Shown piece after piece: positions 859-39,372 of a stretch of DNA of 64,000 nucleotides; position 1 is the stretch's first letter, and each line of letters starts with the position of its first letter. The notes beneath the pieces are model-generated. The model was not told where the DNA came from. It did not search any database and saw only the letters and a list, made by a program, of their open reading frames with translations. Where the stretch lies: positions 107,910 to 171,909 of IMG/VR virus record IMGVR_UViG_3300022745_000018; one strand, given 5' to 3'. This DNA is from a virus. Both the position numbers and the translations under genes were made by a program.

Positions 859-1011
859 TTAGCTGAGCGCCGGTAACGTAACCAGAACCAACCCGCATAG
901 AATGATCACATCAGAATTCGGTACTTTGAAATAGACACCGACCATACCCATTCCAACCAGTGTTACGCCAGAGACAAATGAGGCAATGTTCTTCATGATA
1001 TGTTCTTTCAT
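859..1011 (-). CDS. Small membrane protein downstream of nadV
   Basis: 50 aa from ATG 1011, which overlaps the nadV stop as ATGA; an in-frame ATG at 996 would give 45 aa. Two hydrophobic segments (IASFVSGVTLVGMGMVGVYF and VIILCGLVLVTLPAL) fill almost the whole protein, so a two-pass inner-membrane hairpin is likely. It is translationally coupled to nadV. No family recognised; a part in nicotinamide/NMN supply is only a guess from position. Confidence 0.6.
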   Translation of the reverse strand: MKEHIMKNIASFVSGVTLVGMGMVGVYFKVPNSDVIILCGLVLVTLPALS

Positions 1012-2360
1012 TTTGCTACCGTATCGAACCAAGTGTTAACACCAGCGAAGGCACGTTCACGGATCTCGTCAAACGTTGGCCTGTAAAGAACCTTACCGTT
1101 TTCGTAGTAAGTAACGAAGTCAGCAGAATCTTGATTTCCGCCCTTCGATTTCTTACCAGGATCCGTGATAGGATTCTTCACTGTTTTGACAGCCTTGCCA
1201 CCAATGATCATCTCAGATGTTTTCTGAGCAAACTTGGATGTGTCACGTGTAACGGATTGCAGCAAGCCACCACCTGAGCCTAGCACGACACATTCGGGAG
1301 CATACCCGAGGTCAACCACTTTCTGCATTAGCATCAAAGCAGTGGTTGGGTTGATGCCATCGCCTTGAATGATACCGACATTGTTGATCACTTTCTTGCC
1401 TTTGCTATTGATCTTGTAACCAAACGCATTACTTTGCATTTCAAGCAGAGCAGGCACGACTTCGAACATATCACCTGAATCTGGACGGAACACGACCTTG
1501 GCTCCAGAATTCACGATCTGTTCTTTGAACGTCGTACATAGGAGAGCAGCTTCGCGGAAAGTATTGTAACCATCAATCACGATGGAAACAATAGAACCAG
1601 GTTTCGCATAGACATCAAGCATTCGCTTGAGATATTCATGTTGACCGCCTTCACCGTACGAACATTGGACGCTGTGTTCAGATGCAGGAACTGAGAATCC
1701 GATCGGACCCTTTGCTCCGTAATAGTGTTTAGCGTACTGCAGAGCAGCGACATTGTCTGTACCGCTAAAGAAAACCAAATGGCCAAGACCGCCGACACCT
1801 GAAGATTCGAACGAGGTGGCGCCACGAGAACCGAAGTCATTCAAAGCAAATGGAAGATTTCCTGGATTGTCTGATGCAATATCATAGAACCACTTCAGCG
1901 ACTTGTAGAGTTCTAGACCCTGAGATGCGATCGTGGTGGGATACCAGACAGATCGCTGCATCGCAGTCTCGATGAACGATGCCAGGGTTGGGCACTTTGG
2001 ATCCGTGGAAACAACAGACACAATTGCGGTGTTTGAAGGGACAACTTGACCCTCAGGAATACCACGAACACGAAGAGGTAGGAATCCGCCGTGTTTGTTG
2101 AGGACATGTTCCCACATCGCTCGGTCAAACGGTTCACCGTGTGGAACGATCAGTTCTTCCGCTTCGTCAATGTCAGCTTTTGTGATTGGTGTTTCCAGCC
2201 AGTCCTTGATATAGACACTTAGACCTAAGGGGACGATTCGTTTACCAGAAACACGCGGTTCAATGTACGAATACATCGATTCGGTTCCGTTTGGATAGAC
2301 TGCTAAAGTCTGACTGTATTTGTACGAATCTGCACTGAGAACTACATTTTTCTTGAACAT
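1008..2360 (-). CDS. nadV: Nicotinamide phosphoribosyltransferase (NAMPT/NadV)
   Basis: 450 aa, ATG 2360 behind AGGAG. It makes nicotinamide mononucleotide from nicotinamide and PRPP, the first step of the two-step salvage route to NAD. Family landmarks are all present: DSYKY near residue 11 (substrate-stacking Tyr region), NDFGSRG 174-180, SGTDNVAALQ with Asp202, PASEHS with His229 (equivalent of the autophosphorylated His of human NAMPT), RPDSGD 292-297 (PRPP contacts), IQGDG 331-335 and GSGGGLLQ 361-368. Length agrees with bacterial and phage NadV. It is followed by an ATGA-coupled membrane protein and preceded by the NMN adenylyltransferase gene, which supplies the second step, so the pair forms a complete nicotinamide-to-NAD route. 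Confidence 0.97.
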   Translation of the reverse strand: MFKKNVVLSADSYKYSQTLAVYPNGTESMYSYIEPRVSGKRIVPLGLSVYIKDWLETPITKADIDEAEELIVPHGEPFDRAMWEHVLNKHGGFLPLRVRGIPEGQVVPSNTAIVSVVSTDPKCPTLASFIETAMQRSVWYPTTIASQGLELYKSLKWFYDIASDNPGNLPFALNDFGSRGATSFESSGVGGLGHLVFFSGTDNVAALQYAKHYYGAKGPIGFSVPASEHSVQCSYGEGGQHEYLKRMLDVYAKPGSIVSIVIDGYNTFREAALLCTTFKEQIVNSGAKVVFRPDSGDMFEVVPALLEMQSNAFGYKINSKGKKVINNVGIIQGDGINPTTALMLMQKVVDLGYAPECVVLGSGGGLLQSVTRDTSKFAQKTSEMIIGGKAVKTVKNPITDPGKKSKGGNQDSADFVTYYENGKVLYRPTFDEIRERAFAGVNTWFDTVAK

Positions 2361-2384
2361 TTTTAACTCCTATAGATGTTCGGT

Positions 2385-3389
2385 TTAACACACTTGAGAT
2401 TTGTAAGCCGGTTCTTGAACCACACCGGTCATTACTGAGATGATGTCTTTATGATCATCAAACATAGCGATACTGTTGAGTGCTTCGGATAAAGGCACCC
2501 ATCGGCAACTAGCAGCATCATCACGCCCATTTGCTCTCGGCAGAGAACCATCCTTATCAGGTTGAATTCTAATATGAACAGCAAGGGTGCTTCTTGGGAT
2601 CCCCATGCAGCGTGTAGGATCGTCAAATAGACGCGTTCCTACAATCGAACCACGGAGAACTTTTTCTGGGACACGAACATTCGTTTCTTCATTGAGTTCG
2701 CGGATAGCGCAGTCCAAGAAGGTTTCGTCGCGATTTTTGAAGCCGCCTGGTAAAGCCATCGTTCCTGCGCCGGGTGCAAACTTTCGTTCGATCAGAAGGA
2801 TGTGGCCATTGCATTCCAAGATAGCATCACCACAATTGAAATTGAGTGTATCTGGGTATGGGTATTTAGCGAATGCAACCTTCTCACGTTCATAGAAAAG
2901 GTAATCACCTAGTACCGTTTCTGGTACAGACCGATCTCGTTCAGCAAACAACTTGTTGCGGATCGTTGTTGCATCTATAGCATGAGATGATTCTACGCTA
3001 CGGAATTCAAATTCCGGGAACCAATTCAAATAATCATTCCCGATCTTGTAATGACCGAACAGAATGACTTTTTCGTCAGGTTTTGCTAACGAACCAATCG
3101 TCATCCTAACATCGGTGAGCCATTGCCCATCCGAATAACGATAGTCGTTCAGCGGAGCAAATTCCACTCTAGAGAGATCGATTTTGCTGTTTCGCATAGC
3201 GACGATTAGTGCTTGTACACGTTCGCTATACGTCCATGGATTTTTGATCGAGCGGCATTGGTTAGCTGAACCAACCAAAACCAGTAAACGATCCACTTGA
3301 GATGCGGCTACACCCAACAAGTGCATATGGCCAGCATGCGGTTTTCCAGATTGAAACCGCCCAATAACAACTCCTACAGTTTTCTTCAC
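2385..3389 (-). CDS. nadM: Bifunctional NMN adenylyltransferase / Nudix hydrolase (NadM-Nudix)
   Basis: 334 aa, GTG start at 3389 behind GAGGAG. Residues 1-175 are an NMN adenylyltransferase: GRFQ at 10-13, HAGH at 18-21 (nucleotidyl-transferase HxGH), and the C-terminal TTIRNKL motif at 141-147. Residues 185-325 are a Nudix domain, with the box GGFKNRDETF...REL.EE between 215 and 238. The same fusion is known in cyanobacteria and in some T4-like phages. It would make NAD from the NMN produced by the neighbouring NadV; the Nudix half may hydrolyse ADP-ribose or related nucleotides. It is transcribed from the strong promoter at 3422-3449, with nadV 24 bp downstream. Confidence 0.95.
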   Translation of the reverse strand: MKKTVGVVIGRFQSGKPHAGHMHLLGVAASQVDRLLVLVGSANQCRSIKNPWTYSERVQALIVAMRNSKIDLSRVEFAPLNDYRYSDGQWLTDVRMTIGSLAKPDEKVILFGHYKIGNDYLNWFPEFEFRSVESSHAIDATTIRNKLFAERDRSVPETVLGDYLFYEREKVAFAKYPYPDTLNFNCGDAILECNGHILLIERKFAPGAGTMALPGGFKNRDETFLDCAIRELNEETNVRVPEKVLRGSIVGTRLFDDPTRCMGIPRSTLAVHIRIQPDKDGSLPRANGRDDAASCRWVPLSEALNSIAMFDDHKDIISVMTGVVQEPAYKSQVC

Positions 3390-6438: not shown

Positions 6439-7791
6439 TTACGAGTAAACCCTGTCCTGCTCAGCGACTAGAGATAACGTAATTGTTTTAGATCTTGTTA
6501 GTGTTCCTGTTGTCACCACAAACTTTCCGGAACCTGGCTTAATACCAATCAGAGTAACTGCTCTATCCGTTCCACCAGTAAATCCGCCCTGCGTATTGCC
6601 ATCGTAGTCATATGTAAACGAGATAGAACCTGAAGAAATTGTACCAGTGATAGGTGTACCGGATGCATCATTAACTGTGATTGCACCGGATTCGCCGTAA
6701 TCATTACCAGTGCCGGGAGGAGATGTGAACATCAGACGATATGACGAACCTGCACCAATCAGAGGTGAATTAGCACTAATCACACCAGAAGAACTGTATG
6801 GGTTAGTGCGCTTTGTATTTGAATCGTCGTAGAACTCAACTCTGTTACTATCAGCAGAGGCAACGTTATCAATGTAGACCGATTGGCTAGTGACCAACGT
6901 ATCACCAACGAATGTTAGCAAGTCTGGTTGAATCTTACCAATCTTTGCACCAGCTGTACCGGAAGAATTGATATCTGATGACTGTCTCAGCAGATACTGA
7001 ATCTTCGTGTAAATCTGTTCCAAAGATGCACCATTGCCATTGATGATGATCTTGAAATTATACGAAGTACCACCAATCGTCCTTGATTGGTTTGCCGTGT
7101 AATATGACACAGTGATACCTGAATACGGTGAACCCGTCATTGCCCCGTCGGCAGCTTGAATCTTCAAGTCATCTTCGTTGGCGATCAAGAAGTTAACTTT
7201 GTAAGCACCTGTACCAGTCGCACCGGTATCAGCCAAGATAGATGACTTGTACTTTTTACCATATTCACGAACGAATGTCTTGGCGTATGTTCGTTTATCT
7301 AGGTTGCCGTTCGTTGCATCACCAAACACTTGAACACCGACGTTGAATTGGTCAGTGAATGGGAAGTTGATTGGGGAATCAGTGGCACCTAGGTGGTAAT
7401 ACGGTTGAGCACCAACGTTGATAGAACCCAAGCCAATGAAACCGGCATATTGACGTTGCAGCAAACCAGCAGACGAATACTCTGACCAACCACCATCACG
7501 TAACATATTGCGAGTGGTATCATCAAACCAAGTCCAACCTGAATACGTTGCACCATCAGTACCCAACTGAAACTGACCTGACAATGCGTCAATCGCATAC
7601 ATCGGGAACGGTGAATCTTGATACGTTACAGTCGCCCACGAGTCCACCAATTTCGAATAGACGGCCTGCAGTGTAACGCCGTCTTTCGCAACCAAGTTGC
7701 CAGTTGCGACTAATCTAATCGTCTTTGCAGTTTCGTCGATGATGATCTCTGTGCCGACGTTTAGCAGGGACTTATTTGTAATTTTTGCCAT
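6439..7791 (-). CDS. Virion structural protein (fibre/adhesin type)
   Basis: 450 aa, ATG 7791 behind GAGGATTGAAAC. Rich in Gly, Ser, Thr, Asn with few charged runs, as expected for an extracellular beta-structured protein. The N-terminus (KTIRLVATGNLVAKDGVTLQ) recalls the KRIVLDSATVSAAEI start of the next gene downstream, which suggests a shared attachment domain. C-terminal residues 340-445 look like an Ig-like beta sandwich. Encoded between two other fibre-type genes; receptor binding or decoration is inferred. Confidence 0.7.
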   Translation of the reverse strand: MAKITNKSLLNVGTEIIIDETAKTIRLVATGNLVAKDGVTLQAVYSKLVDSWATVTYQDSPFPMYAIDALSGQFQLGTDGATYSGWTWFDDTTRNMLRDGGWSEYSSAGLLQRQYAGFIGLGSINVGAQPYYHLGATDSPINFPFTDQFNVGVQVFGDATNGNLDKRTYAKTFVREYGKKYKSSILADTGATGTGAYKVNFLIANEDDLKIQAADGAMTGSPYSGITVSYYTANQSRTIGGTSYNFKIIINGNGASLEQIYTKIQYLLRQSSDINSSGTAGAKIGKIQPDLLTFVGDTLVTSQSVYIDNVASADSNRVEFYDDSNTKRTNPYSSSGVISANSPLIGAGSSYRLMFTSPPGTGNDYGESGAITVNDASGTPITGTISSGSISFTYDYDGNTQGGFTGGTDRAVTLIGIKPGSGKFVVTTGTLTRSKTITLSLVAEQDRVYS

Positions 7792-7813: not shown

Positions 7814-7821
7814 TATTTATT
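7814..7821 (-). promoter_or_regulatory. Possible late promoter box before the 450-aa structural gene
   Basis: Minus strand AATAAATA, 7 of 8 to T4 TATAAATA, 23 bp before the start of a virion gene and overlapping the stop of the one upstream. Candidate only. Confidence 0.3.
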
Positions 7822-10616
7822 TACGAATAGTTTCTATCGACAACTAAACTAACTGGTATCGTTGAATTTGTTGTCGTGAGGGCCAGGTTGCGAATATAGT
7901 AAGGTACATACCCGGCTTTAATGAAACCTACATCGATGTTCTGAGTACCAGAATATGTATATGTATACGAAGACGTTGAATTTGCATCCACGCTCGCAAG
8001 AATTGTTGTCGTGCCACTTGATAAGATCACGACATCGCACCCAGTTGGTAAACCAGTGAACGTTACTGTGTTGGAGTCAAGCGCATAGTAATTAGCTTGC
8101 GCGGTTGCCGTTGAAATGGTATTGACATAGAACGATGTGATCGCCGTGGTATTGGTGACGGTCGTTGTTATCTTTAGACGCAACTTCACGCCTTTTGTTG
8201 GATCTAATACACCCAAGCCGTTGAGTGCTGTACCAAGTGTCGTTGCTGTGTAGTTGGCTGTAGTCATTGTTGACCAACCAACGCCATCGTTTTTATCTAC
8301 AGAGAAGTTGTAGTTATAGTTAGTTGCAGTACCACCAGCCATGACCGCTGCTGAGTTGGTGAATTGTGTATGACCGAGGGCATAGTACAGCATTTCAAAG
8401 GTTGCAGTTTGCCCGATGGTTGGCATGTATAGACCGCCAGCTGCAGTGAACGCAGAACCATTTGTCAACGCAACTTGCGAAGCAGTCGCCGTTGTCGCCT
8501 CATTCATTAGAATCGCAATTCTACCAGTTGTGGTTGCGGTGAAATGATCAAACCAATGTGTCCCGTACACGGCAGTTTGTGCAGCGTATGTAGGTGTAGA
8601 ACCACAACCGCGCGTCGTCATATTCAACATACTATTAACCGGGGCATCAGCATAATCACCCATACAATTATCCGAGAAGATAAATGTTGATGAGTTGTCA
8701 CCAGAATATAAATTCGTCCTCGTCCCTGAACAGAACAACCTTTGCATATAGATATATGAAGCAGCGGCACCAGCGCCGATGGCGCAAACAGTACCAGTCT
8801 GATTCACAGAACCCAAAGATAATTGAGACAATGGGGAAGTCCCAATATTGCGTAATTTGATCCTAGTGCAACCAGCAGCGTTGATTGATAGAATGGCGGT
8901 ATAAGGATGAGCATCAGCTAAACCACCGAAAGTTAAGCCATCAAACATGCAATCTGACGTAGCTAAGGCAGTCTCCCATACTGACATTGGGTTTGTTATT
9001 GCTGTTGCTACACCGGAATCGTAATACACTGCATTAGTGAACTTTAGATTATTACATGCCGTTAATAGATATCTTCCATGACCTATCACTGGCTTCGTCC
9101 AAGTGCACGATCCCACACGAGTTAGCGTTGCGCAACCAGTCGTCGCATTGGCTCTAATGACAAATGAGAATTCTTTACACGAATTGAAGTTAAACCCCGT
9201 CATGTCGGATAAGGATGACACGTATCTACCAGCAAGTGCAAGTGTAGCTGACGTGAAGACGCAGCCATTAAAATCACCACCAGCGAAACACAGAGACATC
9301 AGTAAACCGAATTGAGCATTAGCTGCTTCTTGTCCAACAGCAACACGATATATCTTCATTGGCTGAGCGATCTCAGATAGAGACAATTGTGTAGCCACTG
9401 CAGCAAATCTCATCTCTACTGAGTACGACTGGCTGAATGACGGATACCAATTCAATAGTACCTTGTTCATCTTAGTCACTCCACCACCGGTAGTAGTAAA
9501 GTCAAATCGCGTCGCTAATGTTGCGTTCGGTAAAACGTTAGCGGTTCTAGCAGCCGTCGTATTATTTGCCGTAATGATGTTAGGGATTCTAACTCTTCTA
9601 CCCGATGTAGGTACATAACCAACAGTGTTTGTACCGTCGGAACCAAATCTCAGAACGCCAGCGGTAGATACCCAACAGACTTTTCCACGAACCGCATCCG
9701 TTGGTGTAGACGCAGCAGCCAAAAGAGAACCTGCACATGGGTATGCTTCAGGCACAACAGCTGAACCGCCGGAAACATATGTGCCTGGATTTGCACTGGT
9801 GACGGTGAATGATGTAGATGTCACTGCGGTGATTTCTAAATCAGCTACGTTGTACCCAGATGGTGAAGCACCAGTCACGGTGACTTCGTCTCCGACTAAG
9901 AATGTGTTGCTTGAACACTGGTATGTGATGGAACCACCGGAATATGAAGCACCAGTGATAGTGACCACATCTGAATCGACATAGACGGCTGGGTAATACT
10001 GAATACCACCGTTAGTCGGTAATTGATATGTTGTTGTTGATAGACCAGATGTCGTACCGGCTGAATACCATGCACCATAGATCTCAACTGAACCGAGGCG
10101 GTTCACTATGAACCCAGCCGACTCATCACCATTTACTTCAATGAATCCAATTGTGGGTGCACCAGAAATAGTGAATGTGAAACCTGCCTGTGTGAATGTG
10201 CCACTTGATGGCAATGTGCCAGAAACATTGGTGACTTTAAGGAAACCTGTTGCCACACCTGTTAAAACTGGAGCAACGTTGACGGCTGAATATAAACCGA
10301 TTGTGTTTGCAGTTGTCGTGGATAAAGTAATTGGCGCACCTGCGGTCAATGAACCAGAACCAGCAGTGAATGGGATCAACCAGACCTTCGTTGCATCGAT
10401 GATAAACTTACCACCCTTTGATGCATTGATGGTAATGTTCCCCCATGTTGTTGAAGTAGTGCCGCCTAAACCATACCGGCTATCCTGATCTTGAGTGACA
10501 GTCCAACCGTTCGTATCAATAGTGTCACCGCCAGTTCTAGCAGTAGCGACACCCCAAATTGCGGCATTACCTACATCTCGTAGGGTACCGTTGCCGGCCA
10601 TGGTAAAAGCAGTCAT
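7821..10616 (-). CDS. Large adhesin / tail fibre-like protein, 931 aa
   Basis: The largest gene of the 5.8-12.4 kb block. It starts MTAFTMAGNGTLRDVG and continues with WTVTQDQDSRYGLGG and ITINASKGGKFIIDATKV, an N-terminal signature I associate with phage host-recognition proteins. The body is low in charge and rich in Thr, Ser, Gly, Ala, with repeated short strands (for example TITGASYSGGSITYQCSS and VTVTGASPSGYNVADLEITA), consistent with a beta-helix or stacked beta domains. The last 100 residues look like an Ig-type or carbohydrate-binding tail. Probably mounted on the tail; the receptor is not readable. Confidence 0.75.
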   Translation of the reverse strand: MTAFTMAGNGTLRDVGNAAIWGVATARTGGDTIDTNGWTVTQDQDSRYGLGGTTSTTWGNITINASKGGKFIIDATKVWLIPFTAGSGSLTAGAPITLSTTTANTIGLYSAVNVAPVLTGVATGFLKVTNVSGTLPSSGTFTQAGFTFTISGAPTIGFIEVNGDESAGFIVNRLGSVEIYGAWYSAGTTSGLSTTTYQLPTNGGIQYYPAVYVDSDVVTITGASYSGGSITYQCSSNTFLVGDEVTVTGASPSGYNVADLEITAVTSTSFTVTSANPGTYVSGGSAVVPEAYPCAGSLLAAASTPTDAVRGKVCWVSTAGVLRFGSDGTNTVGYVPTSGRRVRIPNIITANNTTAARTANVLPNATLATRFDFTTTGGGVTKMNKVLLNWYPSFSQSYSVEMRFAAVATQLSLSEIAQPMKIYRVAVGQEAANAQFGLLMSLCFAGGDFNGCVFTSATLALAGRYVSSLSDMTGFNFNSCKEFSFVIRANATTGCATLTRVGSCTWTKPVIGHGRYLLTACNNLKFTNAVYYDSGVATAITNPMSVWETALATSDCMFDGLTFGGLADAHPYTAILSINAAGCTRIKLRNIGTSPLSQLSLGSVNQTGTVCAIGAGAAASYIYMQRLFCSGTRTNLYSGDNSSTFIFSDNCMGDYADAPVNSMLNMTTRGCGSTPTYAAQTAVYGTHWFDHFTATTTGRIAILMNEATTATASQVALTNGSAFTAAGGLYMPTIGQTATFEMLYYALGHTQFTNSAAVMAGGTATNYNYNFSVDKNDGVGWSTMTTANYTATTLGTALNGLGVLDPTKGVKLRLKITTTVTNTTAITSFYVNTISTATAQANYYALDSNTVTFTGLPTGCDVVILSSGTTTILASVDANSTSSYTYTYSGTQNIDVGFIKAGYVPYYIRNLALTTTNSTIPVSLVVDRNYS

Positions 10617-17552: not shown

Positions 17553-19007
17553 TTATGCCGTCTTTGACCAATAGTCCTGCATCTGGACTTTGGAGAATGA
17601 AGATTCGTTGTTTCTGACCATCAGAATACCATCTGGTTGACTTGATGATCCGTTAGATCCAACGATAGTTGGTGGACTAGACACGATGATCGGTTGTTGA
17701 TTCTGAGTGGCTGGTCTCATGACAACTGAATCTCTTTGTTGGTTCAGGTTATCAATAGACTGGACAAAGTTTCCTTTTGATGGAGTGATTGCTTTTTGTC
17801 CAGCATCTTCATTAAGCAGATCGTAGATAGCTCCACCAAATGTATTCTGTCTGCCAGACACCACTGACGACAGTGCATCCAACCCTGGTGCTACAACACT
17901 AGATCCTAGACCAAAGCCAGCCATTCCAGCGGCACCTAAACCGATTGCTGGGATCTGAGCTATTGATGATAGAGTGCTCATTATTCCACCCACCATCGTT
18001 GACCCCTCTGCTGCAGCAATACCGGTTTCAGCCGTCCCTTTCGGTAGCAACTTCTCTAGAGTTTTTGCGACGGTAGAGTCGACGACATCTGAACCAAACG
18101 TTCTTGCGGGTTTGATCATGCTATCGTTGACCATATCAATTGATCTGTCCACGATGGCTTTACCGGCGGAATAGGTTTTCGTCCCTTTCGCCTTCGTCTT
18201 TATTAACGAAACGATTTTATCAACGAATGTTGGTTTGTCGTCTTTCTTTGGTTGCTTCTCAACCACATCCGTGACGTCATTTTTATTTGTTCGAGACGCC
18301 AGCGTCTTTAAGACTTCGTCTTGTTTTCCAAACAAACCAGATTCAATTTTCTCTCTTTGATGTTCATAACGCAATTCTGGGTTGCGCTCTTCGATGGTAT
18401 CATCCATCTCAATCATCAACTGATCTAACTGTTGCAGTTGACCTGACATCGTCTTCAGAGTTAGCGATGCTTCTTTAGTGTTCGTCGCGATACTAGTCAG
18501 TTGCTTCAGTTCGGCTTGACCGGTTGCACTTTGTGTCTGTTGAATTTGTTTTACGGATAGACCATCGCGCTTTAGGAAAGCATCGTACTTTTCATAGACT
18601 TCCTTGTGCTGCTCTCGATGTGCCGCAAAGTCTTTTGCATTCATCTTCCTACCAGAACTGAGGATCTTAACGATCTCGGATTTTCGTTCGTTTGCTTTTT
18701 CTGGTGTAGACGATTTTGTCTCGGTATCTGCAAACCGAGACTCTTTTGCTAAAGCTCTGTAGTTTTCTAGAATCTGAGCGGCAAGATCTCCCAAGACTGG
18801 TGATCTATCTGCTATGGAGTTCACTAGTCTGTCACCAAGCGGCGACATCATTAGAGATTTGAATGCACTCTCTAATGTAGGTTTCTTGATGATATCTTCA
18901 ATCGTGCCCTTTGTACCAGCCAGTTTTTCGCTGAACAGTTCTTTATGGGAATTGAAGATGTTTTTAGCGGTTAGACTAAGTGCTTCCCTAATCAGTGCTG
19001 CACTCAT
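17553..19007 (-). CDS. Probable virion protein with helical N-terminus and hydrophobic core
   Basis: 484 aa, no family recognised. Residues 1-260 are helical and charged (long stretches of Lys, Glu, Gln); residues about 325-375 are Gly/Ala-rich and hydrophobic (GIMSTLSSIAQIPAIGLGAA, GMAGFGLGSSVVAPGL); the last 80 are Ser/Pro/Gln-rich. This could be an internal or membrane-interacting virion protein, or a tail-associated scaffold. It closes the baseplate gene block. Confidence 0.6.
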   Translation of the reverse strand: MSAALIREALSLTAKNIFNSHKELFSEKLAGTKGTIEDIIKKPTLESAFKSLMMSPLGDRLVNSIADRSPVLGDLAAQILENYRALAKESRFADTETKSSTPEKANERKSEIVKILSSGRKMNAKDFAAHREQHKEVYEKYDAFLKRDGLSVKQIQQTQSATGQAELKQLTSIATNTKEASLTLKTMSGQLQQLDQLMIEMDDTIEERNPELRYEHQREKIESGLFGKQDEVLKTLASRTNKNDVTDVVEKQPKKDDKPTFVDKIVSLIKTKAKGTKTYSAGKAIVDRSIDMVNDSMIKPARTFGSDVVDSTVAKTLEKLLPKGTAETGIAAAEGSTMVGGIMSTLSSIAQIPAIGLGAAGMAGFGLGSSVVAPGLDALSSVVSGRQNTFGGAIYDLLNEDAGQKAITPSKGNFVQSIDNLNQQRDSVVMRPATQNQQPIIVSSPPTIVGSNGSSSQPDGILMVRNNESSFSKVQMQDYWSKTA

Positions 19008-33919: not shown

Positions 33920-35166
33920 TCTATTCTTGTGTTAAAACTGTCGTTCACCAATTCCATGTGCATAGAGTGTTGGTTGAATTTGAATTGGTGCCTAATTGCC
34001 GTGACTAAGTATCTACCAGAGTAGTAATCAGATTTCACATCCGATAAGATAGATTCTTTACCTATCTGTCTATTATCAGGTATCGAAAATTTAACAACGT
34101 CACCAACTTTCATGTCCGTTCTACCATATGTCTTGACATTGATCTTGACGGTATTCAGTAGAGACACTATAGCAGCCCGCTTCAAATATCCGGAATCGAA
34201 TGGTGTCTTGACTGGTCTACCGGATACATATTCATTCTTCAGTACGAAGTTGAAATTTGATTTCTTTGATCGTTTCAACTCAGATGATCTCAATGGATAT
34301 TTGTTCAGGTGGCTGCTTGAATCGAAATCATTTAGATAGTCGAATTCATGTAGAGCAGCTGCTCTAGTGGTTACATCAAATGTGTATAGGTAACTGGCGT
34401 TTGCTCCAGCTGATTGAATGCGCATATAATCAAATGTTGTCTGGTCTTCCACTAATTCAACAACACGATATTTCTGTTCGTAGTCGCCATTAGGACCAAA
34501 AGAAGTTGCGGAATCAACATCGCCAAATACGTAATCGCGTTTCGTCTCACCCTTCAATAGAGATGAGATCGTTCTGAAGTTGTACTTTTCGCGATCTTGA
34601 TAGAAGATGAAGTCAGTATCACCTGCTACGGATACAGCCCTTGTTGAAAGCCAATTGATCGTTTCAAGCGGCGACCAATAAGGTGCAATGAACTTGATGT
34701 TGTTCTTTGTTCTCTCGGTGTATAGTGTCTTGTCTGAACCTAGATACCTTTCATCCTTGAAGATGGATGAGACCAAAGTAGATGCTTCGCCATTGAAACT
34801 TTTCGCGATTGTGTTATTGAGCGAATTGATCTGTTCAGTGGAACAGAAATTCAATGAATATGCTGCAGAACGAAACTTCCTAGAAAGAACGGTCATCTTG
34901 TAGATGTAGAACGTATGGACGATTCTTTCAGATAGAGTCGGCGTTCTATATGAAACTGATAGCAATTCCTGACCGATCATCGGTAGACTATCGATCAAAC
35001 CAACTGCATCGTTGATCACGATATACCCAGATGATGTTGTAGCAAACATGTCCTCAAAAATAACGACATCCTCAGCCAACCCAGACACATCAATCTCTTT
35101 CCCAGAATGAGAAATAATTTTGATCGTATCTACAAAGACTTCACCCGGGAATTTCAGACTTTCCAT
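33916..35166 (-). CDS. 27: Baseplate hub protein gp27
   Basis: 416 aa (T4 391). The N-terminal tube-like barrel (VFVDTIKIISHSGKEIDVSG, VVIFEDMFATTSSGYIVIND) and central YWSPLETINWLSTRAV fit the gp27 hub family. It forms the trimeric ring to which gp5 attaches, linking the tube to the spike. The gp53 stop and gp27 start touch; the gp5 start overlaps the gp27 stop. Confidence 0.85.
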   Translation of the reverse strand: MESLKFPGEVFVDTIKIISHSGKEIDVSGLAEDVVIFEDMFATTSSGYIVINDAVGLIDSLPMIGQELLSVSYRTPTLSERIVHTFYIYKMTVLSRKFRSAAYSLNFCSTEQINSLNNTIAKSFNGEASTLVSSIFKDERYLGSDKTLYTERTKNNIKFIAPYWSPLETINWLSTRAVSVAGDTDFIFYQDREKYNFRTISSLLKGETKRDYVFGDVDSATSFGPNGDYEQKYRVVELVEDQTTFDYMRIQSAGANASYLYTFDVTTRAAALHEFDYLNDFDSSSHLNKYPLRSSELKRSKKSNFNFVLKNEYVSGRPVKTPFDSGYLKRAAIVSLLNTVKINVKTYGRTDMKVGDVVKFSIPDNRQIGKESILSDVKSDYYSGRYLVTAIRHQFKFNQHSMHMELVNDSFNTRIE

Positions 35167-35750
35167 TAAGCACCACCAATTGATTGCTCAAACTGAGTCA
35201 CGAATTCATTTAGCATTTCGGGTCTAAGCAGTCTGATTAGACGTTTCTGTTCATTCAGTGCAAACTCGTGTTCATAGAATGTGACTGGTAGAGCAGTGAT
35301 GTCTGTGTTTGTTGGTGGTACCCATGTAGAGATGTTGTAACATTCTCTGAATTCACCAACCACAATATCGTCCTTCTTGTAATACCAAACCTTGTTCATA
35401 TTGGGTACTTCTTCAGTTTCGCCGTCTGGTACAAATGTACCAGGGTATTGAATTTTACAGAAGTCATATAGCATCTGATCTGTCATTGGCCAATCGGTGT
35501 ATGAAGAATGAAGTTCATTGAACAACATCACGACCCAAAACAACTTCGGTGAACCGTAGATGGCAGCCGCAACTGACTCTGGACTATCGCCTGACTTGAT
35601 TGTGTAAGGTAGATAGACATCTGAATAGTTCTTTACATTTGAGATGAACTTTGATCGACGTAGGATGCCACGGACGACATCCATTCTTCTCTGTCTACCT
35701 ATCACGGTGACATATGTACCAAATGGCATTGATGCGAAGTAGCCGTTCAT
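35166..35750 (-). CDS. 53: Baseplate wedge protein gp53
   Basis: 194 aa. The LysM-like pattern LPYTIKSGDSPESVAAAIYG followed by SPKLFWVVMLFNELHSSYTD is diagnostic for gp53. It clamps the wedges to the hub at the end of wedge assembly. Same size as T4 gp53 (196 aa). Confidence 0.94.
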   Translation of the reverse strand: MNGYFASMPFGTYVTVIGRQRRMDVVRGILRRSKFISNVKNYSDVYLPYTIKSGDSPESVAAAIYGSPKLFWVVMLFNELHSSYTDWPMTDQMLYDFCKIQYPGTFVPDGETEEVPNMNKVWYYKKDDIVVGEFRECYNISTWVPPTNTDITALPVTFYEHEFALNEQKRLIRLLRPEMLNEFVTQFEQSIGGA

Positions 35751-36710
35751 TTAGAATCCAGAAATAATAGGTTGATCTTTTGTGTAGACACGACGTCTAT
35801 CAATGAGTTCAAGTTCCTTGAATGTAAGACTTAATGTCTTGACGACAGGTGAACCATCTGGTAAAGTTGCCCACTGCCCCATCGGACTGTAGTTGGTCGA
35901 AACGTTCGTGCATGCACAGGTTGCAATTCTGGGAACGTTTGGGTTATCTTTACTACCATGAATGAAACTGATTTCAAATTCACCAGGGAACAGATAGAAC
36001 ATCCTATTTGCCTCAAGTTCGGGTAGCGAATAGAAACGGAATGTCTCAATGATTCGATTGACTGCTTCCGATTCTTGCTGCGATTTTGGGGCTAACATGA
36101 ATCTAAAGTTGAATGTCCTTCTAGAGAAACCGTTATAAAGCAGTTCCTTCTTGGGATTCACGATGTTTCTGTTTGCAGCCAATAGATCTCTCGACGACGT
36201 TATCTGACCTGCGCCTACTGCTCCACCAACAGCATTGAACCCTTTCTGCTGCAGATCGTAGATGATGGACTTGGCCAAACCACCAACAGTATTCCCAACA
36301 CCAACGTTGGCGGTATCCGCGAATTTTGTTAGAGCAGATTGATCGTGTTCCTGATACTCGATGTTAGTCTCAACCGAATGGTCTTCTGGCATCGGTAGAA
36401 TGATGGATTTTTCGACACGGACCATTTCCTTCTGTTGCACCCATCGTGTCGCGATTACTGAATTTGTGTCATATTTCTCTAAGACTGTTTTATCAGCGGG
36501 CATTCTATATGTAGGCACTGACGAAATACCAGTACCCAAACGTTCCGTCGTAACGAATACTGGTTGCTCACTAGTATCATCCCTCAACTTGGATGCCGAT
36601 GTAGTATTGTTAATTTTGAATAGCACATACTGAGCTGGATTGCCGACTGTGTCAATGTCAGAATGTCCTAGTGTCAGTGGATAGCTTAGGATTTTGGAAG
36701 TGTTAGTCAT
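35751..36710 (-). CDS. 48: Baseplate-tail tube protein gp48
   Basis: 319 aa. NPKKELLYNGFSRRTFNFRF and a tube-protein beta sandwich toward the C-terminus (FEISFIHGSKDNPNVPRI, VKTLSLTFKELELIDRR) match the gp48 baseplate-tube family. It caps the hub and starts the tail tube with gp54, which is encoded divergently next door; both would be needed at the same time. Confidence 0.85.
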   Translation of the reverse strand: MTNTSKILSYPLTLGHSDIDTVGNPAQYVLFKINNTTSASKLRDDTSEQPVFVTTERLGTGISSVPTYRMPADKTVLEKYDTNSVIATRWVQQKEMVRVEKSIILPMPEDHSVETNIEYQEHDQSALTKFADTANVGVGNTVGGLAKSIIYDLQQKGFNAVGGAVGAGQITSSRDLLAANRNIVNPKKELLYNGFSRRTFNFRFMLAPKSQQESEAVNRIIETFRFYSLPELEANRMFYLFPGEFEISFIHGSKDNPNVPRIATCACTNVSTNYSPMGQWATLPDGSPVVKTLSLTFKELELIDRRRVYTKDQPIISGF

Positions 36711-36759: not shown

Positions 36760-37401
36760 ATGTCAAGTTTCAAAGAATTTCGAGCTGAATTGTCGAAGCG
36801 CAATGTAGCTCGGTTGAATCAATATGAGGTTGTGATCAATCCACCTCCAGGGTTTGCGGTAGATTCTGACATCCTGAAGTTGATCAATATGTGGTGTTCG
36901 TTTGCGTCTACCCCACAGACCAGCATCTTCACAAATGATTCGTATGTTGAAGCTGGTAATCGTCGGAAGTTTGCATATAACCATGATACGAATAATCTCT
37001 TCTTGCACTTCTATGGCGATCAAGACAACAAGATCAAAGACTTTTTCAACCAATGGATTGATTCAATTACTCCAAGGAATCGCAGATTTGCATGGCCAGA
37101 TTCATATACGTCTGACTCAATCGTTGTCTATGTTCTAAACCGCGAAAGCGAAAGAGTCTATCAGTACAAATATGCTCGTTGTTTTCCGAAGATGATCACA
37201 TCCGTTGAATTCGGTCACGGATCAAACAATCATGCATTGCAGTTCGGTGTGGAGTTTGTCTTTGAATGGGTCGAATGCAATGACATGGGTCCGAAAGATC
37301 TTCTACCGAGAACGATGCCGAGTAAATCAGAAAACATCGAAGTCCAGCAGACTCAACCGATGCCAGATTATCGTGACTATAACTATCTAAATGGAGCTTA
37401 A
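36760..37401 (+). CDS. 54: Baseplate tail tube initiator gp54
   Basis: 213 aa, ATG 36760 behind AGGATC. Tail-tube fold: RLNQYEVVINPPPGF, MWCSFASTPQTSIFTNDSY, LFLHFYGDQDNKIKDFFNQW, then YARCFPKMITSVEFGHGSN. It matches gp54, a gp19-like protein, but is shorter than T4 gp54 (320 aa). First gene of a short plus-strand island; 49 bp separate it from the divergent gp48. Confidence 0.85.
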   Translation: MSSFKEFRAELSKRNVARLNQYEVVINPPPGFAVDSDILKLINMWCSFASTPQTSIFTNDSYVEAGNRRKFAYNHDTNNLFLHFYGDQDNKIKDFFNQWIDSITPRNRRFAWPDSYTSDSIVVYVLNRESERVYQYKYARCFPKMITSVEFGHGSNNHALQFGVEFVFEWVECNDMGPKDLLPRTMPSKSENIEVQQTQPMPDYRDYNYLNGA

Positions 37402-37405
37402 GTGA

Positions 37406-38095
37406 ATGACCAAGATTATTCAACCGACATACGTGACAACTCAACCATCGACTGGTAAGAAGATTCAATATAGACCTTATACCATCAAAGAAGAGAAGGC
37501 TCTACTATATGCTTTGCAAGACGGCTCTCTAGATGCCATCGTTGCCGCCATCAAGAATACCGTAAATGCTTGCACTGAGGGTGCACTGGATCCATCTATT
37601 GCGCCTTACTACGACGCTGAATATGTATTCCTGCAGATCAGATCAAAGTCAGTTGGCGAAGTGGTGGACCTGAAGGGTGGATGTGACGAAGGTAAACCCG
37701 GCGAAACGGATTTCACGGTCGACATTCAAGATATCGTGATTGAACCTAAACCGGAAAGTCATATCGTCATCAAGATTCCACAATCGAACTACACCGTCAA
37801 GTTCAGACATCCAACAATTGACGAATTTGCTAGCATCTATGAATCTGGTGGTGAAAATGCTAGTGATGTCATTGCATCATGTTTGGTATCTGTTTATACC
37901 GACGACGAATCGTTCGACTGGTCCACTCAAGAGAAGATTGATTTTGTGGATTCCATGAATCCGATCCAGCAGAAACAGATCGCCGCTTGGATGGCGAACA
38001 TGCCGAAGATCAAACTGACTGGGTCTTACACATGTAAGGGTTGCGGCAAACTACACACAAAAACGGTTTCTGGATTCCAGAATTTTTTCGTCTAA
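37406..38095 (+). CDS. 26: Baseplate hub assembly protein gp26 (T4_baseplate family)
   Basis: 229 aa, GGAG upstream of ATG 37406. Family pattern: YRPYTIKEEKALLYALQDG, EYVFLQIRSKSVGEVVDL, FRHPTIDEFASIYESGG and a C-terminal CKGC zinc-finger-like end. Needed for hub assembly in T4. The last codons, AAT TTT TTC GTC TAA, contain a slippery run beside a -1 frame that stays open for another 62 codons. Confidence 0.88.
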   Translation: MTKIIQPTYVTTQPSTGKKIQYRPYTIKEEKALLYALQDGSLDAIVAAIKNTVNACTEGALDPSIAPYYDAEYVFLQIRSKSVGEVVDLKGGCDEGKPGETDFTVDIQDIVIEPKPESHIVIKIPQSNYTVKFRHPTIDEFASIYESGGENASDVIASCLVSVYTDDESFDWSTQEKIDFVDSMNPIQQKQIAAWMANMPKIKLTGSYTCKGCGKLHTKTVSGFQNFFV

Positions 38096-38130
38096 CGGTT
38101 GATAGAATTTCTTTGAGTGATAGTCTATCA
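38083..38130 (+). promoter_or_regulatory. Candidate programmed -1 frameshift site
   Basis: Heptamer T TTT TTC at 38083-38089 in the gp26 frame, four codons before its stop (counting the two slipped codons). Ten bases later comes a 7-bp stem, TGATAGA (38100-38106) with TCTATCA (38124-38130), loop 17 nt. A slippery run, a short spacer and a stem are the elements of bacterial and phage -1 frameshifting. Confidence 0.55.
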
Positions 38131-38277
38131 GCCGCTCACATCTTACGTTATCACTTCAAGTATGATGGTCAGACAATTGACCAGATGCTGCCATGGGAAA
38201 TGGATGTGGAACTGTCCATGATTCATAGATCATTGAAACAAGAATTAGCTGCTCGTGGTGTTGGTGTAGACGGTTGA
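38083..38277 (+). CDS. -1 frame extension of gp26 (likely frameshift product; gp51-like position)
   Basis: Open in the -1 frame relative to gp26, from the slippery heptamer to the stop at 38277: FFRLTVDRISLSDSLSAAHI ... YDGQTIDQMLPWEMDVELSM ... VGVDG. It lacks a convincing start of its own: the only ATG (38041) lies inside gp26 and without a ribosome-binding site. The segment with the MLPWE word is like the small frame found after gp26 in other T4-like phages, by memory. Best read as the C-terminal part of a gp26-frameshift fusion of about 290 aa. Confidence 0.6.
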   Translation, partial: FFRLTVDRISLSDSLSAAHILRYHFKYDGQTIDQMLPWEMDVELSMIHRSLKQELAARGVGVDG

Positions 38278-38383
38278 TAGAGACATCCAGAATCTCACCA
38301 GATCACATCCAGAATTCTGTATGATAGATACCATCGGTACAATTCGTGAGCCTCTAGAACTCATCTAGAAAAAGCAAAAAAAA

Positions 38384-38409
38384 AACGGAGTCAGTTTCCC
38401 AACTCCGTT
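38384..38409 (-). terminator. Strong rho-independent terminator after the AAA+ ATPase gene
   Basis: AACGGAGT / ACTCCGTT, 8 bp, followed on the minus strand by ten T (38385-38376). A second small hairpin, GCCAG/CTGGC, lies between it and the gene (38414-38429). It ends the long minus-strand accessory transcript before the convergent gp26 genes. The rest of 38278-38445 holds no gene. Confidence 0.9.
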
Positions 38410-38445
38410 AAAGGCCAGTTTTACCTGGCATCGACAACTAACAAC

Positions 38446-39372
38446 TCATTCGTTCGTCAGAACGTAATCCACCATCGATTCAAAGTCTGGGTGCTTCTCA
38501 TATGTTTGAGCGATTCGCACGACTTGAATCAAAGAACGCAGCGACAGATCCTTGACATTGTCCTTGTATTTGTATTTGTATAGAACATCCAGAGCAAGTT
38601 TCTTGATATTCTGATCGGCTTCCGGCATGAAGTCTTGTTCGTAAGCAATCTTGGTCATCCGGATCATCTTCTCTTCAGTTGTCATAGACACATCGATGAC
38701 GATAGACCGAGTACGGAGAGCTTGCGAAAGCTTGCGTTTGTCCATGTTCGTGATAAAGATGATGCCGCCAGTGAATCGGAACGAACGTGGCAGATCATCA
38801 CCGAAGATTGATTCTGCATTCCACGAAACGATACGTTCGTCACAAGAATCGCATACGGCTTTCAGAAGATTGGAAGCAGTTTCGTCGCGGAGAACAGAAT
38901 CACAATCATCGAATAGAAGAATGGAATCTTTGTTTTCGTAGAGAGTGCGATAGAGTGCTTTTGCAGTTGAATGTCCTTTCACTGCACGGAAACGTTTGTG
39001 TGGAAGACGTTCACCTGCATTAAACGATTCGGTGTTAGAAACATCTGTCAGACCAGCAGCTTTCAGTGCTTTTATGACGGTGACTGATTTTCCGAGACCA
39101 CCGGGTCCTGCGATGATGACGGACGGTTGACTCTTATCGGCAACCATCGTAACGAAGTTGGTGATGAATTGGAAGCGGAGGTTGACATCATATTTGTTGG
39201 ATGTCATGTCTTCCTCAAAGCTTTCCTTTGAAGCTTGGACCGTTTCACCGGATCCGTCAATCTGACTTGCTCGCCATGTGATGTACGATTCACGTTTAGA
39301 CGAATAGCGTTTGCCGTTAGGAGCAACGCAGAACCATTCGCCGGTTTTGTTATCAAATTGAACTTTAGCCAT
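38446..39372 (-). CDS. AAA+ ATPase
   Basis: 308 aa, ATG 39372 behind AAGGAATTGCAAA. Walker A GPGGLGKS at 89-96, Walker B ILLFDD at 151-156, sensor 1 FITNMD near 206-211 and arginine-finger candidates R220/R222. A short N-terminal domain (GEWFCVAPNGKRYSSK) precedes the core. A single AAA+ module this small may remodel DNA or protein complexes; the partner is unknown. It is the first gene after promoter copy B, with its own terminator, so it forms a single-gene unit. Confidence 0.85.
   Translation of the reverse strand: MAKVQFDNKTGEWFCVAPNGKRYSSKRESYITWRASQIDGSGETVQASKESFEEDMTSNKYDVNLRFQFITNFVTMVADKSQPSVIIAGPGGLGKSVTVIKALKAAGLTDVSNTESFNAGERLPHKRFRAVKGHSTAKALYRTLYENKDSILLFDDCDSVLRDETASNLLKAVCDSCDERIVSWNAESIFGDDLPRSFRFTGGIIFITNMDKRKLSQALRTRSIVIDVSMTTEEKMIRMTKIAYEQDFMPEADQNIKKLALDVLYKYKYKDNVKDLSLRSLIQVVRIAQTYEKHPDFESMVDYVLTNE

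What the first reader, a model, noticed from the sequence alone, without database searches (positions are those of the whole stretch)
37406..38277. Likely programmed -1 frameshift joining gp26 to a downstream frame
gp26 ends in AAT TTT TTC GTC TAA. The heptamer T TTT TTC, a 10-nt spacer and a 7-bp stem-loop are followed by a 62-codon open -1 frame with no start of its own, overlapping the gp26 end. Tail assembly chaperones of many phages (lambda G/GT, P2 E/E') use -1 frameshifts; T4 instead has separate genes 26 and 51. This would extend the rule to the T4 hub-assembly genes.
Basis: partly seen in the sequence, partly recalled or inferred. Interest (0 to 1): 0.72.

Follow-up and report, generated by a model that had tools for sequence, protein, structure and literature searches.

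The report
Conserved −1 frameshift in gp26/gp51
A T4-like virus makes a short and a long version of one tail-assembly helper protein by letting some ribosomes slip back one base near the end of gene 26; the slip signal is kept in nearly all T4-like phages except those, like T4 itself, that carry the two versions as separate genes, and the principle has already been reported.

Summary
Window gp26 (37406-38095) ends AAT TTT TTC GTC TAA. That frame matches the gp51 family (PHROG 634).

All 92 distinct gp26 junctions compared (13 named phages, 78 environmental contigs, the window) carry in-frame U_UUU_UUN followed by a homologous −1 extension. The codon before the run changed at least 28 times on a tree and always ends in T. 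Many relatives add an SD-like GAGGG 9 nt upstream.

T4 gp51 is not only the downstream piece. It aligns with the whole frameshift product across the junction. Genomes carrying two copies (T4, Acinetobacter) lack the heptamer.

So gp26/gp26-51 are the short and long tail assembly chaperones, like lambda G/GT. Vladimirov et al. 2022 (not held; read through two citing papers) assigned T4-like TACs to these genes and described the separate short and long genes. This is a new member of a known kind. Frameshift efficiency is untested. Ackermannviridae keep the −1 frame without the heptamer, which is unexplained.

The parts
37406..38095 (+). gp26, the short tail assembly chaperone form (TAC-N), 229 aa
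   Evidence: PF12322 T4_baseplate E 2.3e-50; PHROG 150 baseplate hub 9.6e-48; tblastn hits in 621 phage records
38083..38089 (+). Slippery heptamer U_UUU_UUC: zero-frame codons UUU UUC re-pair as UUU UUU after −1 slip
   Evidence: Read directly; in-frame UUUUUUN in 92/92 distinct junctions; codon-choice statistics
38093..38095 (+). Zero-frame stop TAA, one codon after the heptamer
   Evidence: A 0-1 codon gap is kept in 88/92
38096..38134 (+). Downstream stem-loop, arms 38096-38106 and 38124-38134, 11 bp, 6-nt spacer: probable frameshift stimulator
   Evidence: MFE -17.8 kcal/mol, z -3.2 to -5.4; downstream regions of relatives fold better than control regions of the same genes, p=1.5e-12
38089..38277 (+). 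−1 frame extension (gp51-like TAC-C), 62 codons plus stop, probably expressed only as the gp26-51 fusion (290 aa)
   Evidence: PHROG 634 E 2.1e-7; homologous extension in 92/92, 57-75 aa including FF in the 91 not cut by a contig end; aligns with the C-terminal part of T4 gp51
36760..37401 (+). Tail tube initiator-like protein (gp54 position), directly upstream of gp26
   Evidence: PHROG 45 tail tube 1.4e-24, PF06841 1.6e-5; order 54-26-51 also annotated in Mosig and phiM9
35751..36710 (-). gp48-like tail tube cap protein, neighbouring tail gene
   Evidence: PF11091 T4_tail_cap 2.6e-7
35166..35750 (-). gp53-like baseplate wedge protein, neighbouring tail gene
   Evidence: PF11246 Phage_gp53 2.3e-11

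Best explanation
This is a programmed −1 ribosomal frameshift that makes two tail assembly chaperone isoforms from one gene. Most ribosomes stop at 38093-38095 and make gp26 (TAC-N, 229 aa). A minority, paused by the 11-bp stem, slip back one base on U_UUU_UUC and make a 290-aa gp26-51 fusion (TAC-NC). By analogy with lambda G/GT, the shared domain would coat the tape measure or hub complex and the C-terminal extension would recruit tail tube subunits; both would leave before the tail is finished. Shown here: the anatomy, its conservation, homology of the fusion to T4 gp51, and absence of the heptamer in the duplicated lineages examined. Inferred: that slippage happens in the host, its efficiency, and the binding partners.
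For: (a) 92/92 distinct junctions have in-frame UUUUUUN and a homologous −1 extension. (b) The codon before the run is AGT, GAT, TCT, AAT, GCT, ACT, CAT or GGT, always NNT (expected 62%); it changed at least 28 times on the tree and always ended in T, so the nucleotide, not the amino acid, is selected. (c) Residues between the slip site and the first usual start codon are conserved in most relatives (FFRLxLSHxxLxNYYxxNF). (d) The window has an 11-bp stem 6 nt downstream, and relatives fold better than control regions. (e) An SD-like GAGGG lies 9 nt upstream in 55% of relatives against 0.6% background; GAG:GAA is 51:16 there against 16:40 before other Gly codons. (f) T4 gp51 matches PF12322 and PHROG 634 and aligns with the window fusion across the junction, profile E 1.4e-14, BLASTP 1.9e-5. 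(g) Phages with two PF12322 copies (T4, AB-Navy97) lack the heptamer; T4 gp26 still ends GLKEFFELL but writes FF as TTC TTT after GAG. (h) The gp26 model (pLDDT 91.7) gives HK97 tail assembly chaperone 2OB9 as the PDB match with the highest probability.
Against: No expression data exist. The fold match to 2OB9 is weak (E 0.57, probability 0.60). The window lacks the SD-like element that many relatives have. Ackermannviridae and related Vibrio phages have the −1 frame without a canonical heptamer, with a single PF12322 copy in the three records scanned, so the heptamer is not universal. In the window the next gene is convergent on the other strand, not a tape measure gene.
Confidence: 0.93

Rival explanations
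1. The downstream frame is a separate gene (gp51) translated from its own start or by re-initiation at the gp26 stop.
For: Public records annotate short separate gp51 genes; 12/92 relatives have an ATG overlapping the gp26 stop; some Ackermannviridae have TAATG.
Against: The window has no ATG before 38185 and no SD before its TTG; conserved residues lie upstream of the annotated internal starts in many relatives; all 12 relatives with the overlapping ATG also keep the heptamer; T4 gp51 is the full-length fused form.
Confidence: 0.04
2. Transcriptional slippage on the T-run, rather than ribosomal slippage, makes the −1 message.
For: The site is a T-run; 22/92 have seven or more T.
Against: 70/92, the window included, stop at six T followed by another base, short for polymerase slippage (general knowledge); SD-like and stem-loop elements sit at ribosomal-frameshift spacing; the phase of the run relative to codons is fixed in 92/92.
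Confidence: 0.02
3. A sequencing error or recent mutation broke a single longer gene.
For: A homopolymer is a common place for indel errors.
Against: The same junction occurs in 92 distinct sequences, in both isolate genomes and metagenomes.
Confidence: 0.01

Closest known systems
T4-like tail assembly chaperones gp26/gp51 (Vladimirov, Gautam, Davidson 2022, Virology 566:9; not held, content taken from PMC10885494 and PMC12846349)
   Same: Same gene family. PMC10885494: some T4-like phages carry a short gene and a long fused gene instead of frameshifting. PMC12846349: poly-T slippery signals are known in TAC-N genes of T4-like phages.
   Different: The window uses one gene with a frameshift, not T4's two genes. 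Whether that paper describes the SD-like element or the stem-loop could not be checked.
Phage lambda gpG/gpGT (Atkins et al. 2016, PMC5009743)
   Same: Low-level −1 slip near the 3' end of a tail chaperone gene makes a long minor form; short and long forms share the N-terminal domain.
   Different: No sequence similarity was looked for or shown. The review states the rule holds 'except T4'.
Phage P2 E/E' and contractile-tail relatives (for example Vandenendeviridae, PMC12846349, conserved GTTTTT)
   Same: −1 slip joining two tail genes in contractile-tailed phages.
   Different: Different slippery motif; sequence relation not tested here.
HK97 gp13 tail assembly chaperone (PDB 2OB9)
   Same: Highest-probability solved structure for the gp26 model.
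   Different: Covers only about 87-91 alignment columns; E 0.57.

Membership tests
Programmed −1 frameshift of the X_XXY_YYZ class | In-frame slippery heptamer before the zero-frame stop | tested here: met
   U_UUU_UUC at 38083-38089, stop one codon later
Programmed −1 frameshift of the X_XXY_YYZ class | Downstream stimulatory structure at about 5-9 nt | tested here: met
   11-bp stem after 6 nt, z -3.2 to -5.4; that it stimulates is not tested
Programmed −1 frameshift of the X_XXY_YYZ class | Site conserved beyond what the protein requires | tested here: met
   NNT before the run in 92/92; at least 28 codon changes on the tree
Programmed −1 frameshift of the X_XXY_YYZ class | Fusion product made in vivo | not testable with these tools
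   Needs reporter assay or mass spectrometry
Long-tailed phage tail assembly chaperone (TAC-N/TAC-NC) | Short and long forms share the N-terminal domain | tested here: met
   gp26 and gp26-51; separate T4 gp26 and gp51 both match PF12322
Long-tailed phage tail assembly chaperone (TAC-N/TAC-NC) | TAC fold | tested here: inconclusive
   HK97 gp13 2OB9 has the highest probability among PDB matches (0.60) but E 0.57
Long-tailed phage tail assembly chaperone (TAC-N/TAC-NC) | Usual but not defining: gene lies just upstream of the tape measure gene | tested here: not met
   Next window gene is 38446-39372 on the other strand; in Caulobacter phage Cr30 a gene annotated as tape measure follows closely. 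T4's own genes 26 and 51 are followed by 25 and 27, not by the tape measure gene.
Long-tailed phage tail assembly chaperone (TAC-N/TAC-NC) | Binds tape measure and tube protein, absent from the virion | not testable with these tools
   Needs biochemistry
T4_baseplate family PF12322 | Profile match over the curated cut-off | tested here: met
   171.8 bits against cut-off 24.5

The most novel reading that the evidence does not exclude
A three-part frameshift cassette (SD-like GAGGG, U_UUU_UUN, downstream stem) is ancestral to T4-like phages. It was replaced at least once by tandem duplication into long and short genes: Pseudotevenvirus EC-F2 still has long-then-short in tandem after gp54, before T4's divergent arrangement. 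Ackermannviridae lost the heptamer but kept the −1 frame and use another route, such as AUN re-initiation or non-canonical slippage.
Probability: 0.35. Interest if true: 0.5.

Novelty: new member of a known kind. Interest (0 to 1): 0.33.

Why it matters
[quoted passage not shown] The pattern here would explain both. T4 belongs to a lineage in which a frameshift was replaced by two genes, and gp51 is the long chaperone form. That gives a clean natural comparison of two ways to fix a protein ratio. It also means many T4-like genomes carry a truncated or missing gp51 annotation. As a principle it was already published for T4-like phages, so this case adds support and detail rather than a new idea.

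Tried and rejected
Sequence search of the PDB with the gp26 profile: no match. Pfam scan of 31 extension proteins: only scattered chance-level hits, no tail assembly chaperone family. Structure search of gp26 against the PDB: only a weak HK97 gp13 hit. A canonical heptamer in Ackermannviridae was looked for and not found. Re-initiation, transcriptional slippage and sequencing error were considered and rejected for the window. The key prior paper is not in the library.

Full report
OBSERVATION. The window is part of a 171,909-base virus record. gp26 runs 37406-38095 and ends AAT TTT TTC GTC TAA. The heptamer T_TTT_TTC is at 38083-38089 and is read as TTT TTC in the zero frame; after a −1 slip it reads TTT TTT and continues CGT CTA ACG ... 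for 62 codons to TGA at 38275-38277. The −1 frame has no ATG before 38185; the only earlier candidate after the slip is a TTG at 38113 with no SD-like sequence. The open frame alone would occur by chance with P about 0.03, so it is not what carries the case.

WHAT THE TWO PIECES ARE. The zero-frame product is PF12322 T4_baseplate (E 2.3e-50) and PHROG 150. The −1 extension matches PHROG 634 'baseplate hub assembly catalyst', the gp51 family, at 2.1e-7. The upstream gene is a tube protein in the gp54 position, and gp48 and gp53 homologues lie next to it on the other strand.

CONSERVATION. 80 relatives from IMG/VR and 13 named phages gave 92 distinct junctions, window included. All 92 have in-frame UUUUUUN (second codon UUC 67, UUU 22, UUG 2, UUA 1), 88 have the stop 0 or 1 codon later, and all have a homologous −1 extension; the 91 not cut by a contig end are 57-75 aa long. 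They include Kyanoviridae, Pelagibacter phage Mosig, Caulobacter Cr30, Stenotrophomonas DLP6 and Mendera, Pootjesviridae, and the Straboviridae phages phiAS5 and phi-Grn1. The codon before the run is one of eight, always ending in T; 62% is expected from codon usage in the same genes. It changed at least 28 times on a gp26 tree built without these columns, so even counting only those changes the chance is about 0.62^28, near 1e-6. This is selection on the nucleotides. The tree is a FastTree tree with some poorly resolved branches, so 28 is approximate.

STIMULATORS. Nine nt upstream of the heptamer, 55% of relatives have GAGGG against 0.6% in control stretches of the same genes. Where the residue is Glu, GAG:GAA is 51:16 against 29% GAG elsewhere (p=4e-15), and 16:40 before other Gly codons. 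From general knowledge, an internal SD sequence about 10 nt upstream stimulates −1 slippage in dnaX. The window has TCTGGA there, so it lacks this element. The 70 nt downstream of the site fold better than control regions (mean z −1.58 against −0.19, p=1.5e-12), and several relatives have 7-11 bp stems starting 4-7 nt after the heptamer.

T4 AND THE TWO-GENE SOLUTION. T4 gp51 (249 aa) matches PF12322 over residues 1-201 (3.9e-52) and PHROG 634 over 147-246 (1.2e-23). It aligns with the window fusion over 15-246 / 21-275, across the junction, at profile E 1.4e-14; single-sequence BLASTP gives 1.9e-5. So gp51 is the long form and gp26 the short form. Of 16 phage records scanned, only T4 and Acinetobacter AB-Navy97 have two PF12322 copies, and neither has the heptamer; T4 gp26 still encodes FF at the place but as GAG TTC TTT. 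Aeromonas Aes508 also has both genes. Pseudotevenvirus EC-F2 has the long gene directly after gp54 and the short gene next, in tandem, which looks like an intermediate. T4 gp51 relatives are found by tblastn in 1339 phage records, some of which may be matches to the short gene.

EXCEPTIONS. Ackermannviridae and related Vibrio phages have one copy in the three records scanned and a homologous −1 frame, but GAR ATT TTC ATT TAA or similar at the junction. At the codon overlapping the stop they have ATG (Dickeya/Shigella-type and Vibrio phages), ATT (most Salmonella and Klebsiella phages) or ATA (Erwinia Bue1). How the extension is made there is open.

FUNCTION. Lambda G/GT is the working model: G coats the tape measure, T recruits tube subunits (PMC5009743). 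The gp26 model (pLDDT 91.7) gives HK97 tail assembly chaperone as the PDB match with the highest probability, but E is 0.57, so this is only suggestive. In T4, gp26 and gp51 are listed as hub assembly chaperones, gp51 being absent from the virion (PMC3004832).

PRIOR WORK. Vladimirov, Gautam and Davidson 2022 is not in the library. PMC10885494 states from it that some T4-like phages carry one short gene and one long fused gene instead of frameshifting. PMC12846349 states from it that poly-T sequences are known −1 signals in TAC-N genes of T4-like phages. The main idea is therefore already published, and this finding is a new member.

VERDICT. The mechanism is well supported by comparison but not shown by experiment. 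Interest is modest because the kind is known; the loose end in Ackermannviridae and the SD-like element are the parts most worth following.

Noticed in passing
L016, L018, L100-L117, L118-L121 (gp26 3' ends): Ackermannviridae and related Vibrio phages keep a homologous −1 extension after gp26 but have no canonical heptamer. The codon overlapping the stop is ATG, ATT or ATA depending on the group, so either unusual starts or non-canonical slippage is used.
   Followed up: partly
L124:1501-2794 (Enterobacter phage EC-F2): Pseudotevenvirus with long (gp51-type) and short (gp26-type) genes in tandem after gp54: a likely intermediate between the frameshift gene and T4's divergent pair.
   Followed up: partly
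L003:1564-1701, L004:1564-1695, L009:1935-2069, L014:1980-2102: Annotated 'baseplate hub assembly catalyst' genes in public phage records start internally and cut off the conserved first part of the extension; they are probably annotation artefacts of the frameshift.
   Followed up: yes
L009:1174-1905 and the gp26 end of L022: Two relatives (Mosig and one contig) lack the early stop, so the zero frame runs 8-9 codons past the heptamer, yet the heptamer and −1 frame remain.
   Followed up: no
window 38380-38420: Short hairpin (ACGGAGT...ACTCCGT) preceded by an A-run between the converging gp26-51 and 38446-39372 genes; looks like a transcription terminator, at least for the minus-strand gene.
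   Followed up: no
window 1008-3389: Nicotinamide phosphoribosyltransferase and a cytidyltransferase/NUDIX gene side by side on the minus strand: probably an NAD salvage pair.
   Followed up: no
window 7821-10616, 6439-7791 and 17553-19007: Large reading frames (931, 450 and 484 aa) with no PHROG match at 0.001.
   Followed up: no
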